A DNA stretch of 64,000 nucleotides from positions 1,580,001 through 1,644,000 of the forward strand of contig NZ_CP045298.1 of assembly GCF_009363115.1 (NCBI RefSeq). The letters run 5' to 3'. Positions 50,061-60,455 of this stretch are shown one piece after another. The notes under the pieces are model-generated. The model was not told where the DNA came from and did not search any database. It was given only the letters and a program-made list of their open reading frames with translations. Position 1 is the stretch's first letter; every line of letters starts with the position of its first letter. A program made the translations under genes and the position numbers. This stretch comes from Paenibacillus brasilensis. Its GTDB lineage: Bacteria; Bacillota; Bacilli; Paenibacillales; Paenibacillaceae.

Positions 50061-50285
50061 TCAATAAGATAGGACAAGCTCATGTTGCTCCTCTTGCATC
50101 TGTGAACTATTAGTTATGGTATGTCTACGATAGCTGCATTTCCAATCGCTGTACTTATTAAGGAGTCGATCCAATTCCATGGACTTGAGTAATACCCGTC
50201 GATCCTTCAATCCCACCTCATTCGCCAAATCGTTTAATTCCTTCCGCTTTTCTTCGATGCAGTCCTCCAATTCTTGCCATTTCAC
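50061..50285 (-). CDS. Spo0E-like aspartyl-phosphate phosphatase
   Basis: Small helical protein of 74 residues. The pattern ELEDCIEEKRKELNDLANEVG followed by helix two with SMELDRLLNKY carries the SxxxD motif of Spo0E/YnzD/YisI phosphatases, which remove phosphate from Spo0A~P and so delay sporulation. The frame continues upstream to 50348, but GTG 50285 has AGGAGG nine bases ahead and gives the family size. Lies next to a peptide-receptor module, which in other bacilli also feeds into the sporulation phosphorelay. Confidence 0.85.
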   Translation of the reverse strand: MKWQELEDCIEEKRKELNDLANEVGLKDRRVLLKSMELDRLLNKYSDWKCSYRRHTITNSSQMQEEQHELVLSY

Positions 50286-50395
50286 ATCAATAAACCTCCT
50301 GTTCGGTGTGGTATTTACATTTATTTTACAGGCTGATACCTTCCCCACAGGTTAAAAATATAATAAATCCCATTTCATCCCTTTAACGGAATGAA

Positions 50396-50431
50396 TCAAA
50401 AAAAACAGCCTGAGTGGGGCTGCTTTTTTGA
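50396..50431 (-). terminator. terminator of the receptor-peptide operon
   Basis: Minus-strand AGCAGCC, short loop, GGCTGT followed by a run of T. It lies about 45 bases past the propeptide stop. Confidence 0.85.
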
Positions 50432-50476
50432 TTTATGCTGGAAACTCACCTAAAAGTAATCGAAAAAATTGCGATT

Positions 50477-50611
50477 TCACCCACCTCTACCATGACTAGA
50501 AACTGTAATCTGAGAACCATTACTAGTTACGATATTATGGAAAGAAGACAGAATCCCGATATTACTGACTACTATTAGAGAAAGCAAAAGTGAAAGAAAA
50601 ACCCTCTTCAT
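50477..50611 (-). CDS. secreted signalling propeptide (AloP-like)
   Basis: A 44-residue peptide: basic MKR, hydrophobic export core about residues 4-21, a short polar linker and the C-terminus ITVSSHGRGG. The ATG has an ideal AAGGAGG site and overlaps the end of the receptor gene by 50 bases. This matches the layout of RRNPP systems, where the propeptide is exported, trimmed and re-imported to bind the receptor. The AloR-AloP families described in P. polymyxa have this arrangement, and I recall a member ending in the same residues, but could not check. The mature peptide is expected to be the last 6-10 residues. Confidence 0.8.
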   Translation of the reverse strand: MKRVFLSLLLSLIVVSNIGILSSFHNIVTSNGSQITVSSHGRGG

Positions 50612-51965
50612 CTTTGCACACCTCCTTAATAATAGATTTATAAATCTCAATTTGCCCTTCGTCACATAAAATTCTATTATTCTCAAAAAAAACCATACTT
50701 TGAGCAAAACTCTCTACATTTTTAAGAAAAAATGCTATCTGTATACATTGCAAAATAGCATTTATTGCATCTTTGTATCTCTTATTTCGTCTATAATAAA
50801 TGGCTAATTGAAAATTAAAATTGTAATAATCATCCATGAATATTACATCTTGAGTTTTTCTGAAAATATCAATATATTCAATAAATCGTTCTAAAATACT
50901 GTCAACTGAGAACAAGTTCCTATTAGCGGATTCTAAAATATTCACAAGACCTGGTAATATCTCATCGTTGTTGTTCTCTAATAAGTCCACATATTGAGGA
51001 AGCACAGATGTATCTCCTAATAGTAAATCAAGTGTATAAGAGTTCCCTCTAGACCATAACTTAAACTTTTCGACTTCTCTTTTCCCAACGGTGTCTAAAC
51101 CATCAAACCAACTTAGATCACCATACTCAGCAACAATTTTTTTCGCATTCTCATAGTCTCCAATTTTTTGTAGGGCATACGCTTTCATAAGTAATCCTTG
51201 TCCATAATATACTACTAAATGTCGTTCGGTTTTTATTGGTGCACAACTCCTGTTTTTTCGAGCCCTTCTTTTATTTTCTTCATCATATATTATTTTAGCT
51301 TGTTCCCAAAGCTCATCGCTGTGTGTAATTGTTTCTTGCCATTTATGTAGTGAAGAATATATATTTGTTAGATGCAATAATCCGTCTAATTGATGACACT
51401 CTGGCAACCGAAAACGAAAAGGTTCAAATTGAATAGCTGCTTTTAGATTTATTTCAGTATTCTCACCAATTTTTGCACGAAATAATTTGTAATGACTAAT
51501 AGCCAATCTCTCAGAATGTTGGTATTTTTCATTTTCAATTACACATTCATAAAAAGGAATTGCCTCTTGTAGCTTCCCCCCTTCGTATAACTCCTCTGCC
51601 AAAGCAAAGATTGTAGGAATGTGGTTAAGATCTTCCATTAAGCGCGAAAGTACTTTTTCCACACACCTCAGATTTCCCACTTCAACACAACGAATAAGGA
51701 ACGGTTTAACTCTTTTCCAATGAGGCCTTCCATCATAAAAACATTCATCAACATATAGGTCATACAACCAGTCCTCTGGATAATTAAGCGCTTTGGTAAT
51801 CAAGTCCATTTGTCTCACAGAGATTGGTTTGGGCGGATTGCCATTAAGCATAGCACTAAATACGCCCCGATTAAGTCCCGTAGCTTGTCCAAAACTATTA
51901 AACGTGTAGCCACCAAGCTTTAATTCTTTCTCAATTTCCGAACGAATCGTGGTTGCATTCTCCAA
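50562..51965 (-). CDS. RRNPP-type HTH-TPR peptide receptor (AloR-like), copy 1
   Basis: Regulator of 467 residues. Residues about 8-65 form an Xre-like helix-turn-helix (TFNSFGQATGLNRGVFSAML and PISVRQMDLITKALNYPEDWL); the rest is helical TPR-type repeats with FYECVIENEKYQHSERLAISHYKLF and TERHLVVYYGQG. Expected to bind DNA or a partner protein in response to the peptide encoded at its 3' end. The TTG at 51965 (GGGAGG eight bases ahead) is chosen because it matches the N-termini of the two paralogues in this window; GTG 51974 is too near the ribosome site. A strong promoter lies 75 bases upstream. Confidence 0.88.
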   Translation of the reverse strand: MENATTIRSEIEKELKLGGYTFNSFGQATGLNRGVFSAMLNGNPPKPISVRQMDLITKALNYPEDWLYDLYVDECFYDGRPHWKRVKPFLIRCVEVGNLRCVEKVLSRLMEDLNHIPTIFALAEELYEGGKLQEAIPFYECVIENEKYQHSERLAISHYKLFRAKIGENTEINLKAAIQFEPFRFRLPECHQLDGLLHLTNIYSSLHKWQETITHSDELWEQAKIIYDEENKRRARKNRSCAPIKTERHLVVYYGQGLLMKAYALQKIGDYENAKKIVAEYGDLSWFDGLDTVGKREVEKFKLWSRGNSYTLDLLLGDTSVLPQYVDLLENNNDEILPGLVNILESANRNLFSVDSILERFIEYIDIFRKTQDVIFMDDYYNFNFQLAIYYRRNKRYKDAINAILQCIQIAFFLKNVESFAQSMVFFENNRILCDEGQIEIYKSIIKEVCKDEEGFSFTFAFSNSSQ

Positions 51966-52040
51966 TAAAGACACCTCCCGGCGTATTCAGATGATTTTAA
52001 AAAATCACCCTCCTCGACAATCAATTACAATATACTAGAA

Positions 52041-52069
52041 ATTATATGAATATATTGGATGATGGTCAA
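52041..52069 (-). promoter_or_regulatory. sigma-A promoter for the receptor-peptide operon
   Basis: Minus-strand TTGACC (52064-52069), 17-base spacer, perfect TATAAT (52041-52046). Start near 52034. The rest of the 250-base gap to the divergent Xre gene contains a small hairpin with AAGT/ACTT ends near 52130. Confidence 0.75.
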
Positions 52070-52692: not shown

Positions 52693-54090
52693 TTAAAAAG
52701 TCATTTCCTTGATGTTGTTTTCCACTGCTTTAATCACTTTTTCATATTCTGTCCGTTGTTCATGTGTCGAATGATCCTTATATTTCTCAAACAACAACGT
52801 GATGGACTTGATATAGTAAGCTTTATCGTTCAACTGTGAGGATGCTTTGAGACTGTTCAACATACTGTCTATTGCCTCAGAATAGTTCCCTTTATTAAAA
52901 TAGTAGCGACTAAGCTCAAGAAAAAAACGAGAATAGCTCACCAGATTATAATTCGTACCATAGTAAGAAATATTTGTACGTAAGTCCCTAAATTCATTAA
53001 TATTTTTAGCAAAAAGGGTCAGAATATCGTCTATTATGTGATTGTAAATATTAGCTGATTCTATAATGGTTAACAGCCCCTGAAGTATCTCTTCAGGATT
53101 ACTTTTAATAAGCTCAACATAGGCAGGCAAACTAGTCATATTTCCCATTAGAATTTCTAAATTTAAACGGTTTGCTTCTGCCCACATTTCAAATTTCCTC
53201 GCCTCTAAAAACCCCATTTCATCCAATCCTTCAAAACCAGTCAAATCAGCATAGTAAGGTATGAATTCCATTGCTTCTTCATATAGCCCTTGCTTTTCGC
53301 GGGCATTCCCCTGCATTAAATAAGCTTGACCAAAATAGACGATTAGATGTCTTTCTGTATTTAGAGGTTTAACTTCACGGTTTTTTAATCTATTTTGAAT
53401 CTGCTGCTGATAAACATTTGTGGCAATTACCTCAAGTTCTTTCGCATATTGTATAGTTGTCTCACAGTCATAAACTTGAAAGTATACGTTTACCAGCTTT
53501 AATAGAGCGTCCAGTTGATGATTTTCAGGCAAATTTTTGCGATAAGGAGCAAATTTTATAGCCAGTTGGCGATTATTCTCCAGATCTTTGTTTAAAGAGT
53601 AAGAAAATAGCCTATATTGGCTGATTGCGAGCCGTTCTGAGTGGTAATATCTTTCGTTCTCTACCACACACTCGTAAAAGGGGACAGACTCCTTTTCCTT
53701 GCCTCCTTTATGTAGCTCTTCTGCAAGTTCAAATATCGTCGACACATAGGACAAGTCCTCTGTTAATCTCGACAGTACCCTTTGAATATAGTCTTTCCTC
53801 CCTAACTCTACACAACGCAATAAAAAAGGCTTGATCCGTTTCCAGTGCCCTTTTCCCTCGTAAAAACATTCATCTATGTACATCTCATAGAGCCAGCCCT
53901 CGGGATATCCCAATGCCTTGGTTATCAGGTCCATCTGCCGAACGGAGATTGGCTTGGGTGGGTTGCTGTTCAGCATTGCACTGAAGGTACCGCGGTTAAT
54001 ACCGGATATCTTACTGAAACTGCTAAAGCTATAGCCTCTTTGCTTCAATTCTGTCTCTATTTTCGAGCGGATCGTAGGTGTGTGCTCCAT
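52693..54090 (-). CDS. RRNPP-type HTH-TPR receptor (AloR-like), copy 2, no propeptide
   Basis: Protein of 465 residues, clear paralogue of the 50562 receptor: the HTH part SFSSFSKISGINRGTFSAML and NPPKPISVRQMDLITKALGYPEGWL is almost the same, and the TPR body keeps FYECVVENERYYHSERLAISQY and NTERHLIVYFGQA while the C-terminal half has diverged. ATG 54090 with GAGGAGG six bases ahead. The gene ends directly at a terminator without the 3' propeptide frame that copy 1 has, so it may be an orphan receptor that listens to another peptide. Divergent from the sigma gene at 54387. Confidence 0.86.
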   Translation of the reverse strand: MEHTPTIRSKIETELKQRGYSFSSFSKISGINRGTFSAMLNSNPPKPISVRQMDLITKALGYPEGWLYEMYIDECFYEGKGHWKRIKPFLLRCVELGRKDYIQRVLSRLTEDLSYVSTIFELAEELHKGGKEKESVPFYECVVENERYYHSERLAISQYRLFSYSLNKDLENNRQLAIKFAPYRKNLPENHQLDALLKLVNVYFQVYDCETTIQYAKELEVIATNVYQQQIQNRLKNREVKPLNTERHLIVYFGQAYLMQGNAREKQGLYEEAMEFIPYYADLTGFEGLDEMGFLEARKFEMWAEANRLNLEILMGNMTSLPAYVELIKSNPEEILQGLLTIIESANIYNHIIDDILTLFAKNINEFRDLRTNISYYGTNYNLVSYSRFFLELSRYYFNKGNYSEAIDSMLNSLKASSQLNDKAYYIKSITLLFEKYKDHSTHEQRTEYEKVIKAVENNIKEMTF

Positions 54091-54386
54091 GCCAATCCTC
54101 CTCAATAAGTTTTAGACATATCATCAGTAGTACTTTATATGTAAAACTCCATTCTATAGGAAATTCATTTCAATACAAAATCACGAAAATAGTGAAATAT
54201 ATGGTCAATATCTCTACTTTAATTTATGATGCCTTTAAAAGAAGTCTTTTTTTAATGAATCCCGTGATAATTGAAAAGTTGAATGAAGTACATAAAGAGA
54301 GCATAAAAGCAAGCTTCAAGTTTTTTTATTTGAATGTCACAAACGCATACCTTTTTCAGTTATATAGGCAGAAAGGAGGGATGTTA

Positions 54387-54962
54387 ATGGAAATACTACA
54401 TGCAAATAATCAAGACACAGATATCAATCTTGTCATAGAACAGGTCCAAGCGGGCGACAAACAAGCATACACACATATCATACGACGTTATCAACAACAG
54501 ATCTTTTTATATTGCTACTATTTACTTAAAAATCAGGAAGAAGCAGAAGATGCCGCTCAAGAAATATTCATCAAAGGGCTTGAGCACATCCATCAGTTCG
54601 TACCTACAGTCTCTTTTTCAGCTTGGCTTTACAAAATCGCTCAAAATTACTGTAATGACTTATTAAAAAGAAACGCTAGAAAATTCAAATCCTTCATTCA
54701 GTACAAATTGAACCTAAAGCAACAGCCAATACACGAATATACAAATTTAATTCACGAGTTACTGGACCAGCTAACATTAAAAGATCGTCAAATTTTATTA
54801 TTACGTTCACTTGAGGACTACAACTACGAAGAGATTGCTACAATAATGGGACTGAAATCATCCACGATCCGAAAAAGATATGAGCGACTCCGTAAAAGGC
54901 TAATTAACTACAATGAAAAGGGAGGAAAACAAATTGAGCACTCATTTAAACCCGGAAGATAA
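54387..54962 (+). CDS. ECF-like sigma-70 family RNA polymerase sigma factor
   Basis: Protein of 191 residues. Region 2: YTHIIRRYQQQIFLYCYYLLKNQEEAEDAAQEIFIKGL-type sequence at about residues 27-65 with the AEDAAQEIF core. Region 4: LLDQLTLKDRQILLLRSLEDY and YEEIATIMGLKSSTIRKRYERLRKRL at about 120-175. ATG 54387 follows GGAGG by seven bases; a much longer upstream frame is not supported. The gene for its probable anti-sigma factor overlaps its end by 29 bases. The 295-base gap to receptor copy 2 holds the divergent promoters and a possible ECF -35 (TGTCAC, 54335-54340). Confidence 0.9.
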   Translation: MEILHANNQDTDINLVIEQVQAGDKQAYTHIIRRYQQQIFLYCYYLLKNQEEAEDAAQEIFIKGLEHIHQFVPTVSFSAWLYKIAQNYCNDLLKRNARKFKSFIQYKLNLKQQPIHEYTNLIHELLDQLTLKDRQILLLRSLEDYNYEEIATIMGLKSSTIRKRYERLRKRLINYNEKGGKQIEHSFKPGR

Positions 54963-56079
54963 AGAAATCGAGCACTTACAAAAGCTTATTCGGAATACTC
55001 CATTACAAGTAGATTTAATTGATAGAACTATGGAACGCTTTGAGAAAGTGGGCACAAGACGCTATAAGCGATCTAACATTCGACCAAAAAGGACACGTAA
55101 TACAATTGTTGTGACTTCTGCTACGCTTGCAATGACGTTTATGCTTGTGGTTGGTACTGGCTTTATTTCACCAACTATGGCTGCATCTATTAGACAAATT
55201 CCAGGTATGAATTCTATATTCCAGCTAGCTGGTGATCTTGGTTTACAAACAGCGGACGAAAAAGGGCTGTTATCAAAACCAAATCTTAGTGACACTCACG
55301 ATGGCCTGACTCTCAGCGTACCGGAAGTCATGTTTGATGGAACACGTGTATCAATTGCCTTAGAACGACAAACCACTGACAAAAGATTTTTAAACACCGA
55401 ATTACCCTTGTTACTTGATGATTTAATATTTTCCATTAATGGCGAAGAAATTAATTCTTCTTATGCACCTAAAAACACCAGCAACTCCATTGACTCATAT
55501 ACGATACCTGGAAAAAATTCGAATTCAACCATTATACAATTTTCAGATTTACGTAATCAAGGAGGAAAATCTTTTCCAGATAAGTTTGATTTAACAATTT
55601 CCATGTCTGTCTCCGGCATTAAGCAGCCATTTAAAATAGAAATTCCTGTGGAAAAGAATACTAAGAATAACTTAGTTTTTACACCATCCCTTAAGCGAGA
55701 GTATAAAAACATTGACTATACTCTAGAAAAAGTTGAGCTCACACCGATTACAACTAGCATCACAACTCGCATAAAGCTACCTGCTAATTCAAAAATTTCT
55801 TCGTCACTTGCTTTGTGGTTGAGTTATGAAATTTACGATGATAAAGGAAAGCAACTAAATTTAATTAGCAACAATGGTTGGAGTGCTACTGATGGCAACG
55901 TTCTGATAAATGATTCACGATTTGAACCTTTCATCTCTCTCCCCAAAGAAATTACTATAAAGGTTTATAAAGATATCTTAAAAAAGGATGATAAGAGCAA
56001 ATTCGAACTAGGGAAAGATGGAAATCCAAAAAAAGAGTATTTCCCTGATTTAGAAATTACTTACCCAATTAATCCATAA
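54934..56079 (+). CDS. DUF4179-type membrane anti-sigma factor
   Basis: Protein of 381 residues: cytoplasmic N-terminus (about 50 residues) that would bind the sigma factor, one membrane helix about 48-72, then an outer DUF4179-like beta domain (GLTLSVPEVMFDGTRVSIALE, FDLTISMSVSGIKQPFKIEIPV, ending EYFPDLEITYPI). TTG 54934 is chosen: AAGGGAGG lies eight bases ahead, while the ATG at 54913 has none. Paralogous in plan to the 58727 protein. Signal sensed is unknown. Confidence 0.83.
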   Translation: MSTHLNPEDKEIEHLQKLIRNTPLQVDLIDRTMERFEKVGTRRYKRSNIRPKRTRNTIVVTSATLAMTFMLVVGTGFISPTMAASIRQIPGMNSIFQLAGDLGLQTADEKGLLSKPNLSDTHDGLTLSVPEVMFDGTRVSIALERQTTDKRFLNTELPLLLDDLIFSINGEEINSSYAPKNTSNSIDSYTIPGKNSNSTIIQFSDLRNQGGKSFPDKFDLTISMSVSGIKQPFKIEIPVEKNTKNNLVFTPSLKREYKNIDYTLEKVELTPITTSITTRIKLPANSKISSSLALWLSYEIYDDKGKQLNLISNNGWSATDGNVLINDSRFEPFISLPKEITIKVYKDILKKDDKSKFELGKDGNPKKEYFPDLEITYPINP

Positions 56080-56798: not shown

Positions 56799-58094
56799 TC
56801 TGACTGCTGCATATGCTCTTGAAGAACCTCAATTGAAATGGGTGGCTTAAACCAATTCCTCTGCTGGGATAATGAAAGATAATTGAGAGTATCCTTTTGC
56901 CCTGCTAGTATTCTCCCACGTCTGTAATGGTAAACGGCAAGCTGATACATGTAACAATAATAATAGGTCATTTGTTTAATATCCTCAGATTCCTTTAATC
57001 TCTTTATTTGCTCAGAATATTTATCAACAATAGAGTCTACGTCAAAATTATACCTATTAGCAGTTTCTAGTATAGTTATAAGACCGGAACCTATTTCTTT
57101 AGGGTGATTTTCGAGAAAAGTTATATACGCCGGAAGGATATCTCTCTTGCCTAAGAGTAAATCTAAAGTATAAGAATTGGTTTAGCCCACACACGGGATT
57201 GCTCCACATCTGCTTCACCTTCTGAATCAAGCCCTTTAAACCAGCTTAAATCTGCGTAGCCCTCAAGCTCTGCCCTTGCCTCTTTAATGTAACCTTTCTT
57301 TTGCAATGCCGTAGAGACCGAAAGAAACCCATAACCATAGTAAAATACCAAGTGCCGTTCTGCATGCAACCATGTAGCTGCTCTTATTTTCTCCTTCTTT
57401 TTTGCTGATTCATATAGATTACATAAGCTAGGTTCTTTAATTCATGACCGTACTTCTCTACCTCATCCCATTTGTGTAAGTAAAAATATATATTTATGAT
57501 CTTATGAATTCCCTCCAACTGATAATGCTCAGGAAGTAAATTACGATAAGGTATAAATTTCAATACTAACTCAAGGCTCTTTTCCAAGTCAGACATTGTA
57601 CAAGCCTTAAACCTTTTATATTGGCTTATAGCCAACCGTTCCGAATAACGATATTTTTCGTTTTCGATTACACATTCATAAAAGGGGATAGCATCTCCCC
57701 CTTTTCCGTTAGCATCTAGCTCTTCTGCAAGCGCATATATAACTGGTAAATAAGACAAGTCCTCTGTTAATCTCGACAGTACTTTTTGAATATAGTCTTT
57801 CCTACCCAACTCCCCACAACGCAATAAAAAAGGCTTGATCCGTTTCCAGTGCCCTTTTCCCTCATAAAAGCATTCATCTATGTACAACTCATACAGCCAG
57901 CCTTCAGGATATCCCAATGCCTTGGTTATCAGGTCCATCTGCCGAACGGAGATCGGCTTGGGCGGGTTGCTGTTCAACATGGTACTGAATGTACCTCGGT
58001 TAATACCGGATATTTTACTGAAGCTGCTAAAGCTATAGCCCCTTTGCTTCAATTCTGTCTCTATCTTCGAGCGGATCGTAGGTGTATGTTCCAT
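56795..58094 (-). pseudogene. RRNPP-type HTH-TPR receptor (AloR-like), copy 3, two frameshifts
   Basis: The first 236 codons (58094-57384) are intact and nearly match copy 2 through the HTH and first TPR helices. Then the frame breaks near 57384-57410 at an AAAA run. The next frame resumes with AERHLVFYYGYG and breaks again near 57184, after which NSYTLDLLLG and ILETANRYNFDVDSI continue to a stop at 56795. Together the pieces rebuild a full-length receptor of about 430 residues. No propeptide follows. Either decayed or affected by sequencing errors in homopolymers. Confidence 0.82.
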
Positions 58095-58726: not shown

Positions 58727-59932
58727 TTATTTGGGCTTATTTTCTCCGATAGGGATTTTCATTTCCAGTTCAGGCAGGTATGTTCTTTTCCAATTCCCAC
58801 TTTCATCATATACAGGTTTGCCTTCTGGTCCAGTTACATTGAAATAGGGTTTAATGGTAATAAATTTCGGTGTCTTTTTAAAGGGAGCTACGAATATCTT
58901 GTAAACTCCAGGCCTTATTTTAGTACCAGGATGTCCTGATCCTCCAGTAATCCATTGCTGTTCATGTCCCTCATCATCCAAGATAGCGTAGTCCACTTTA
59001 TTCATAGCGAGCCCATACCCGTATGTCTCACGCCCAAGCGTTGTCGGCCCCGGGCTTATGTAATGCGTCTTGGTTACAATCATGGTCGACATGGGTGTCA
59101 TCTCTATTTTTTCCACAACCAAACGGGTAAAATCATTTGATTTTTCAACCCGGGGAGTGAGCACCCTGTTCTTTGAGGGAATTTTTTGCACAGGTAATTC
59201 AAACTTAAAAGATTCTTTTATTCCTTGGATTTGTATGTCTGCCTTTAGTTTAAATTGGTCAGGAAGCTCCTTTCCTGAAGAGTACATTTTCTCTAAATCA
59301 CTATAATGAATGATGACAGAACCAGGTGTGCCTCCAGAATTAGTAATCAGCGAAGGACTATCAAATTGAAAAGGTTTGCCATTGTACCATAATGTGATAT
59401 CCTCAATTCGGTCTTGCAGCGCTGTGCCCAAGGCCTCCCCGTTACTTTCCAGTGTTAGAGCCAGACGAACACCGTCATAAGCAACCTGGGATATACGGAG
59501 TCGGGTTCCGTTATGAGTGCTGCTGGCCGTTGTCTTTGTCACCAGACCTGCTTTCTCGACCTCCTGAAGCCCTGGGTCACCTGCTCGCATAAATGCATTA
59601 CCACCTGCTGTTGAGAACCCTTGATTAGCTGCTAACTGCAAAACATTGTTGACCATGGGTACTTGCCACAACATTTTCGCCATGTTAGGAGAAACGAATG
59701 CCGAGGCTACGATTCCACTGCTCAACACCATAGTTGTTGTGAGCAAAGTTCCTATAAATCTACGATGGCGTGAGGTTGAGTCTGCTTGGCCCATATTTTG
59801 ATAGATAAAACCTGTCTCAATCTGGCTATATACAGCCTCCAGCCGTTGCCGCACATATGGTGTAATGACATGCTCATTGCGAACTTTTGCTTTAGCTGTT
59901 ACCCACTCATTATCAAGTTCAATATCTCCCAT
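58727..59932 (-). CDS. DUF4179-type membrane anti-sigma factor, second copy
   Basis: Protein of 401 residues with the same plan as the 54934 protein: cytoplasmic part about 1-58, one membrane helix about 60-82 (GTLLTTTMVLSSGIVASAF), the shared juxtamembrane pattern MVNNVLQLAANQGF, and an outer domain (LRISQVAYDGVRLALTLES, FKLKADIQIQGIKESFKFELPV, YLPELEMKIPI). ATG 59932 lies within the end of the sigma gene (14-base overlap). Probably holds the sigma factor at the membrane until an unknown envelope signal. Confidence 0.83.
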   Translation of the reverse strand: MGDIELDNEWVTAKAKVRNEHVITPYVRQRLEAVYSQIETGFIYQNMGQADSTSRHRRFIGTLLTTTMVLSSGIVASAFVSPNMAKMLWQVPMVNNVLQLAANQGFSTAGGNAFMRAGDPGLQEVEKAGLVTKTTASSTHNGTRLRISQVAYDGVRLALTLESNGEALGTALQDRIEDITLWYNGKPFQFDSPSLITNSGGTPGSVIIHYSDLEKMYSSGKELPDQFKLKADIQIQGIKESFKFELPVQKIPSKNRVLTPRVEKSNDFTRLVVEKIEMTPMSTMIVTKTHYISPGPTTLGRETYGYGLAMNKVDYAILDDEGHEQQWITGGSGHPGTKIRPGVYKIFVAPFKKTPKFITIKPYFNVTGPEGKPVYDESGNWKRTYLPELEMKIPIGENKPK

Positions 59933-60455
59933 GGATCGGTGTTCCCCTTTCTCCCGAGTTTGATAGCATGCGAAGCAGAGATTTCCGTGCGCGATACAAC
60001 CGTGTTTTGACCAGACTCTCTGAAATGCCCAGCGTTTTCGAAATCTCCTTAATATTCAGATCATAAAAATATCTTAAAATGATAACAAGCCGCATCGGCT
60101 CTTCCAATTGATCCACTGCTTCATGCAGTTCAATATTTTCATACTCGCCAGAAATACCTACTTGGTATGAAAACTCAGATACAGCAACGGAGCGGGAACG
60201 CTTTTTAGCAATTTTTTTGGATTCATTAATGATGATCCGATACATCCAGGTTTTAAAGAGACTCTCGTCCCGCAGTGTACCCAAAGACTTATATGCCTTG
60301 AGTATGGCTTCTTGTAGCGCATCTGCACTATCTTGTTCATTTCTCAGGATAGAGTACGCCATTCCGTATAAATCGTTTTCAACTTCTCTAATGATGTTCA
60401 CAAAAGCCCGTCTATCTCCATGTTGTGCCTTCTTGACTTCATTCTCGATATCCAA
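59919..60455 (-). CDS. ECF-like sigma-70 family RNA polymerase sigma factor, second copy
   Basis: Protein of 178 residues resembling SigV/SigW-type factors. Region 2: AYSILRNEQDSADALQEAIL and FKTWMYRIIINESKK. Region 4: LEEPMRLVIILRYFYDL and IKEISKTLGISESLVKTRLY. TTG start at 60455 behind AGGAGG (six bases). It is more typical in sequence than the 54387 factor. A TGTAAC element 54 bases upstream (60509-60514) is a candidate self-recognised -35. Confidence 0.9.
   Translation of the reverse strand: MDIENEVKKAQHGDRRAFVNIIREVENDLYGMAYSILRNEQDSADALQEAILKAYKSLGTLRDESLFKTWMYRIIINESKKIAKKRSRSVAVSEFSYQVGISGEYENIELHEAVDQLEEPMRLVIILRYFYDLNIKEISKTLGISESLVKTRLYRARKSLLRMLSNSGERGTPIHGRY

What the first reader, a model, noticed from the sequence alone, without database searches (positions are those of the whole stretch)
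50477..52069. Complete peptide quorum-sensing pair: HTH-TPR receptor with overlapping propeptide
Seen: strong promoter, receptor gene, and a 44-residue export-competent peptide with a perfect ribosome site overlapping the receptor end by 50 bases, followed by a terminator. Known: RRNPP families (Rap-Phr, NprR, AloR-AloP of Paenibacillus) have this layout. Inference: the last residues, ending SHGRGG, are the mature signal.
Basis: partly seen in the sequence, partly recalled or inferred. Interest (0 to 1): 0.75.

Follow-up and report, generated by a model that had tools for sequence, protein, structure and literature searches.

The report
Known Paenibacillus quorum-sensing pair AloR13-AloP13
This is a bacterial signalling pair, a secreted six-residue peptide and the protein that senses it, already worked out experimentally in a close relative; what looks new is that relatives carry different signals at the same place while keeping the same output gene.

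Summary
It is not a new system. It is the ortholog of alo13 of Paenibacillus polymyxa ATCC 842 (PMC7425212), where SHGRGG was inferred by mass spectrometry and shown to act: AloR13 activates the spo0E-like gene directly downstream and SHGRGG shuts it off.

Beyond the paper: 15 of 75 genus genomes carry this locus. All 15 keep the spo0E promoter, with a 16-bp near-palindrome at the -35 position (candidate AloR operator; 14 exact, 1 with one mismatch). But a ~1.1-kb cassette (aloR from about codon 163 through aloP) occurs in six types with different peptides, 39-61% identical between types, whose distribution contradicts the trees of linked genes. So the locus appears to swap signal specificity while keeping its output: pherotype exchange, a known kind of phenomenon, not found described for Alo in my searches.

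The parts
52041..52069 (-). promoter of aloR13, TTGACC-17-TATAAT
   Evidence: 11 of 12 consensus letters; conserved in 4 of 4 SHGRGG-type loci
50562..51965 (-). aloR13, HTH-TPR receptor, 467 aa, TTG start with ribosome site GGGAGGT at 51973-51979
   Evidence: TPR matches; the HTH falls below Pfam reporting in this copy but is found in its neighbour; 93% identical to G024, G026, G045; predicted HTH plus TPR fold
50477..50611 (-). aloP13, 44-aa propeptide ending SHGRGG; ribosome site AAGGAGGT at 50620-50627; overlaps aloR13 by 50 bp
   Evidence: conservation; published mature peptide
50395..50432 (-). terminator hairpin after aloP13
   Evidence: z -4.67
50377..50392 (-). candidate AloR13 operator ATTCCGTTAAAGGGAT, near-palindrome at the -35 position of the spo0E promoter
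   Evidence: 0 mismatches to ATYCCKTTAAMGGRAT in 14 of 15 loci, 1 in G012; only zero-mismatch place in the genome; function inferred
50360..50365 (-). likely -10 element TATTAT of spo0E
   Evidence: by eye from the aligned promoters; inferred
50061..50285 (-). spo0E-like target gene, GTG start, 74 aa
   Evidence: Pfam PF09388 E 7.4e-13; primer Alo13_R, at the end of the published Spo0E promoter fragment, matches 50286-50308 exactly; reported as AloR13 target in P. polymyxa
52693..54090 (-). aloR14-like orphan receptor, 465 aa; no propeptide ORF passed the scan downstream
   Evidence: same place in G024, G026 and G045
56882..58094 (-). third aloR-type gene, broken into three matching pieces

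Best explanation
The pair is the Alo13 quorum-sensing system. AloP13 is made from an ORF overlapping the receptor gene, exported, trimmed to SHGRGG and taken up again. AloR13 without peptide switches on the spo0E-like gene next door; bound SHGRGG stops this, so at high cell density Spo0E falls and its brake on the sporulation regulator Spo0A is expected to ease. Shown in print for the ortholog in P. polymyxa ATCC 842: secretion of C-terminal fragments, a processing pattern that points to SHGRGG, a sequence-specific response to synthetic SHGRGG, activation of the spo0E promoter by AloR13 and its shut-off by the peptide (in B. subtilis). Inferred here: that the same holds in this organism; that AloR13 binds the 16-bp near-palindrome at the -35 position of spo0E; and that the peptide-sensing half of aloR together with aloP forms an exchangeable specificity cassette, of which the window carries the SHGRGG type.
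For: Published experiments. Receptor 93% identical to that of G024, whose propeptide contains the published ATCC 842 pro-peptide letter for letter and which matches the four spo0E primers, Alo13_R and AloP13_mut_R with 0 mismatches. Spo0E-like gene directly downstream. Mature sequence invariant with synonymous change only, 6 pairs of genomes. Operator: 15 of 15 loci with 0 or 1 mismatch. Cassette: receptor residues 151-end 82-99% identical within and 39-61% between types, against uvrB at 89-97% to the window in 14 of 14 genomes; the types are clades in the receptor tree (5 changes) but need 9 changes on the uvrB tree and 8 on the 3' flank; AU tests reject 2 of 2 groups tested on uvrB and 5 of 5 on the 3' flank.
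Against: Nothing was measured in this organism. On the 5' flank only 2 of 5 AU tests reject (one at p 0.029), one does not (p 0.256) and two groups are already weakly supported clades, so part of the 5' half may travel with the cassette or lack signal. uvrB lies about 3 kb away and is no independent species tree. The operator motif is weakly enriched in the genome (30 places with up to 2 mismatches against 18 for the reversed control), and the weak match upstream of the aloR14-like gene has 3 mismatches. The whole spo0E promoter block is conserved, not the palindrome alone.
Confidence: 0.9

Rival explanations
1. The short ORF is a chance frame over the receptor's end and the receptor is an orphan.
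For: It overlaps a coding sequence, so its first 16 codons are constrained by the receptor frame; orphan AloRs exist in print, and the neighbour at 52693-54090 looks like one.
Against: The non-overlapping last six codons keep their amino acids through synonymous change; the published ortholog was seen by mass spectrometry and its peptide acts; 15 of 15 loci keep a propeptide ORF there although the sequence differs.
Confidence: 0.01
2. spo0E is controlled by read-through from aloR-aloP past the terminator and not by a promoter of its own bound by AloR13.
For: Genes lie in one direction; in the published construct the locus stood behind an inducible promoter.
Against: A stable terminator lies between; the block after it is conserved in 15 of 15 loci with a -10-like element and a near-palindrome where a -35 should be; the published reporter was shut off nearly completely by the peptide, in a dose-dependent way.
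Confidence: 0.08
3. The six receptor-peptide types are not exchanged cassettes but paralogs of different origin, kept or lost differently after old duplications at this place.
For: Tandem receptors are present (52693-54090, broken copy at 56882-58094, several in G045).
Against: The HTH half, the spo0E promoter, spo0E and motB are common to all types, with edges near codon 163 and at the operator; loss of paralogs would not leave a common 5' half. The window's orphan is at best 46% identical to any cassette. Recombination between old duplicates remains possible as a source.
Confidence: 0.15

Closest known systems
Alo13 (AloR13-AloP13 and spo0E-like gene) of Paenibacillus polymyxa ATCC 842, PMC7425212 (text parts 1-5 of 7 and passages read)
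   Same: Receptor, overlapping propeptide, mature SHGRGG, spo0E-like gene downstream, aloR14 adjacent without an intact peptide
   Different: Pro-region of the peptide and some receptor residues; a decayed third receptor in the window; organism not tested
RRNPP/RRNPPA receptors (Rap, NprR, PlcR, AimR)
   Same: Intracellular TPR receptor with exported, re-imported short peptide; AimR likewise activates the gene downstream until its peptide binds (stated in PMC7425212)
   Different: No PDB chain matches by sequence at E up to 1; AloR is its own subfamily in PMC12700828 (passages)
Pherotype systems such as ComQXPA (abstract in the listing); agr and PlcR-PapR groups are recalled; Even-Tov 2016 on Rap-Phr seen only as a reference title
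   Same: Interchangeable signal-receptor specificity groups inside a conserved locus
   Different: Here one receptor gene is divided: the DNA-binding half and the target promoter stay, the peptide-sensing half plus the propeptide differ; cross-specificity not tested

Membership tests
Alo13 (AloR13-AloP13) | receptor orthologous to AloR13 with an N-terminal HTH and TPRs | tested here: met
   93% to G024, which matches the ATCC 842 primers and pro-peptide at this locus; the AloR13 protein of ATCC 842 itself was not available to align
Alo13 (AloR13-AloP13) | short exported propeptide directly downstream, ending in the mature hexapeptide SHGRGG | tested here: met
   export judged from the hydrophobic N-terminus only
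Alo13 (AloR13-AloP13) | spo0E-like gene directly downstream | tested here: met
   PF09388
Alo13 (AloR13-AloP13) | SHGRGG lowers spo0E expression through AloR13 | not testable with these tools
   published for P. polymyxa and a B. subtilis construct
RRNPP receptors | TPR superhelix related to NprR, Rap, PlcR, AimR | tested here: inconclusive
Pherotype locus | several mutually different receptor-signal alleles at one locus in related genomes, discordant with linked genes | tested here: met
   six types in 15 of 15 loci; AU tests; weaker on the 5' flank
Pherotype locus | each receptor type answers its own peptide and not the others | not testable with these tools
   needs a reporter matrix

The most novel reading that the evidence does not exclude
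The alo13 locus is a signal-specificity exchange site. Between a fixed HTH-coding half and a fixed operator and spo0E promoter, a ~1.1-kb cassette coding for the peptide-sensing part of AloR and its own propeptide is swapped by recombination between Paenibacillus species. Six types are seen, all with peptides built on HGxG, so populations change their signal without changing what the signal controls.
Probability: 0.75. Interest if true: 0.55.

Novelty: already known. Interest (0 to 1): 0.4.

Why it matters
As a pair it adds one more genome to a published system. What matters more is the allelic series around it: six natural receptor-peptide versions on the same promoter and DNA-binding domain, with a working B. 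subtilis reporter already described for one of them. That makes the question of how a signal and its receptor change together without losing function directly testable, and gives a candidate operator for AloR13, none being named in the text parts of PMC7425212 that I read.

Tried and rejected
Operator as a genome-wide regulon motif: ATYCCKTTAAMGGRAT with up to 2 mismatches gave 30 places against 18 for the reversed control. Of the 24 own-genome receptor loci scanned, only the window's has a match with fewer than 3 mismatches. The three 1-mismatch places (L106-L108) were looked at only through ORFs over 80 aa, by eye, so short genes there would have been missed. No regulon is claimed.

Gene conversion from the neighbours as a recent source of cassettes: the window's aloR14-like C-terminal part is at best 46% identical to any cassette and the pieces of the decayed copy at best 61% over 61 residues.

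Naming the organism through the assembly's small contig: one plasmid record with a partial match (24% of the query), Paenibacillus sp. IHB B 3084; not a naming. The nearest named record at the locus is Paenibacillus sp. BJ-4.

Structural search as proof of RRNPP membership: not discriminating. NCBIfam gave no match above a curated cut-off for the six receptors scanned. The HTH-less relatives were aligned but not modelled.

Full report
What is in the sequence. All genes of the finding read on the minus strand. The receptor ORF was listed as 470 aa from a GTG at 51974, but that GTG is part of the ribosome site GGGAGGTG; the conserved start is TTG 51965, giving 467 aa. The propeptide ORF, ATG 50611 to stop 50477, is 44 aa long, has AAGGAGGT 8 nt upstream and overlaps the receptor by 50 bp. 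Upstream of the receptor stands TTGACC-17-TATAAT (11 of 12 consensus letters; 17 promoter-like sites in the region against 15.1 expected, so the number of sites means nothing). A hairpin with a T run follows the propeptide (z -4.67, 0 of 200 shuffles as stable).

It is Alo13. A library search (38 papers with at least 3 of 4 terms, 20 listed) led to PMC7425212; I read parts 1 to 5 of 7 of its text and passages, not its figures or supplements. The paper describes 16 Alo systems in P. polymyxa ATCC 842, takes SHGRGG as mature AloP13 from mass spectrometry, shows by RNA-seq and RT-qPCR that 5 uM SHGRGG lowers the spo0E-like gene directly downstream, and shows in a B. subtilis construct that AloR13 raises and SHGRGG shuts off a reporter put in place of spo0E. 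In the window a Spo0E-like gene (Pfam PF09388, E 7.4e-13) lies directly downstream with a GTG start at 50285. Primer Alo13_R matches the window exactly. Genome G024 matches all four spo0E primers, Alo13_R and AloP13_mut_R exactly (the other two primers carry designed changes and differ by one base), and its propeptide contains the published pro-peptide letter for letter. The window's receptor is 93% identical to those of G024, G026 and G045. The adjacent orphan receptor 54090-52693 corresponds in place to aloR14, which the paper also places next to aloR13 with a degenerate peptide.

Selection. In four genomes (G000, G024, G026, G045; 6 pairs) the last six codons differ by 0-3 synonymous and 0 nonsynonymous changes; the pro-region carries 1-10.5 nonsynonymous changes per pair; the sequence between the stop and the terminator is poorly alignable. 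The 44-aa query found the SHGRGG propeptide in 4 of 75 genus genomes at E up to 0.001.

Same locus, other signals. A scan of named genomes for the receptor gave five loci. Four of them (two P. terrae, P. maysiensis, P. farraposensis) showed a gradient against the window: HTH 95-99%, residues 76-240 71-73%, residues 241-455 39-43%, propeptide 27-42%, Spo0E 73-82%, MotB 90-92%, spo0E promoter 90-92%; the fifth, BJ-4, has the SHGRGG type. A search with the spo0E region found the locus in 15 of 75 genus genomes. All 15 hold an uninterrupted receptor frame (465-473 aa), a propeptide ATG 44-50 nt before the receptor's end, the candidate operator (0 mismatches in 14, 1 in G012) and spo0E. The propeptides fall into six types: SHGRGG (4 genomes), NHGMG (3), GHGTGA or GHGIGG (3), YHGAGG (2), a doubled GHGNG ending GHGNGH (2), AHGVGC (1). 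Where the mature peptide is cut is known only for SHGRGG. All contain HGxG.

Cassette. Receptor residues 151 to the end are 82-99% identical within types and 39-61% between types. In 150-nt windows over 14 chosen pairs, the 6 pairs of the same type stay at 80-98% through the cassette (windows 5-11), whereas the 8 pairs of different type fall to 40-68% in windows 6-11; the extreme is G063 against G062, 98-100% in the 3' flank and 50-56% in the cassette. In 30-nt windows the 5' edge lies near receptor codons 160-170 in three of four pairs examined (in the fourth the decline is gradual) and the 3' edge within about 30 nt of the operator in all four. In the tree of receptor residues 241-end each of the five types with two or more members is one clade (5 changes of type, the minimum), while the types need 9 changes on the uvrB tree, 8 on the 3' flank and 7 on the 5' flank. 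AU tests reject the SHGRGG and GHG[TI]G groups on uvrB (the 2 tested) and all five groups on the 3' flank. On the 5' flank 2 of 5 are rejected (one at p 0.029), one is not (p 0.256), and two are already clades with low support; so part of the 5' half may travel with the cassette, or has too little signal. uvrB lies about 3 kb away and is not an independent species tree.

Candidate operator. Downstream of the terminator the spo0E promoter has a TATTAT without a recognisable -35; in its place stands ATTCCGTTAAAGGGAT, a near-palindrome. Five of 15 loci read ATCCC in place of ATTCC; in four of them (G007, G017, G027, G062) the arms ATCCC/GGGAT are then perfect, in G025 the other arm has changed too. 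It is the only zero-mismatch place in the genome. Since the whole block is conserved and near matches are only weakly enriched (30 against 18), its role is an inference. It fits the published role of AloR13 as an activator and the near-constant HTH.

Structure. The AlphaFold model (37 rows, pLDDT 88.4) is all helical. NprR, Rap, PlcR and AimR are among the matches, but a eukaryotic TPR protein matches at least as well. No PDB chain matches by sequence at E up to 1.

Literature. Papers holding AloR13, AloP13 or SHGRGG: 2 in the library. RRNPP_Detector (PMC10075063, passages), PMC9765709 (passages) and the structural phylogeny PMC12700828 (passages) name AloR; the last treats it as an HTH plus nine-TPR subfamily. 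A search for pherotype, Paenibacillus, RRNPP and specificity (20 papers, 12 listed, listing only) and a term search in PMC7425212 (pherotype 0, mosaic 0) showed no description of specificity exchange in Alo. Most subscription papers are not in this library.

Verdict. The pair is already known, down to its signal and its target. The part that I did not find in print is the exchange of specificity cassettes at this place: a known kind of phenomenon in another family, with a clean split between sensing and output.

Noticed in passing
Loci L029, L030, L031, L032 (own genome) and L045-L074 (genus): Relatives of the AloR C-terminal half, about 270-320 aa stop to stop, without an HTH. In the own genome 3 of 4 have an overlapping propeptide ORF (ending FYHGANH, NHGANY with a second copy NHGANS, NHGMNH). 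Of 30 genus loci examined 16 have such an ORF. PMC7425212 says that all Alo receptors contain an HTH; I could not see its Fig. 1B. They may act through protein contacts as Rap does (inference).
   Followed up: partly
L031; L065-L074: An HTH-less AloR-like gene without a propeptide ORF passing the scan; in L031 the next gene on the same strand looks like rlmH (recognised by eye, recalled). L065-L074 are like L031 at the N-terminus.
   Followed up: no
L120 (Brevibacillus phage SecTim467, record 67399-69130): A phage gene 37.9% identical to the window's AloR13 over 96% of it, next to a gene annotated as putative Spo0E and with an overlapping 45-aa ORF that lacks an obvious hydrophobic N-terminus.
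   Followed up: partly
L024 (G000 contig C2, 34,849 bases) and L121 (plasmid pHD05): An AloR-type receptor with a propeptide ending GIIGGA and a Spo0E-like gene on the small contig; a related receptor and Spo0E pair sits beside AbrB-type genes on a Paenibacillus plasmid.
   Followed up: no
window 54078-56079 (+) and 58727-60455 (-): Two ECF sigma factor genes, each followed by a DUF4179/DUF5643 gene, flank the aloR cluster on opposite strands.
   Followed up: no
L032, both flanks: Translations on both sides of an HTH-less receptor show the repeat FNHNMRCIEI, which looks like CRISPR repeats; not tested.
   Followed up: no
window 51993-52006 (-): Inverted repeat GATTTTTTAAAATC in the aloR13 leader, kept with small length changes in the four SHGRGG-type loci; might be a regulatory site.
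   Followed up: no
own genome, L009-L028: Twenty rows match AloR13 through its HTH half, besides the HTH-less ones and fragments (29 matches in all), one of them on the small contig.
   Followed up: partly
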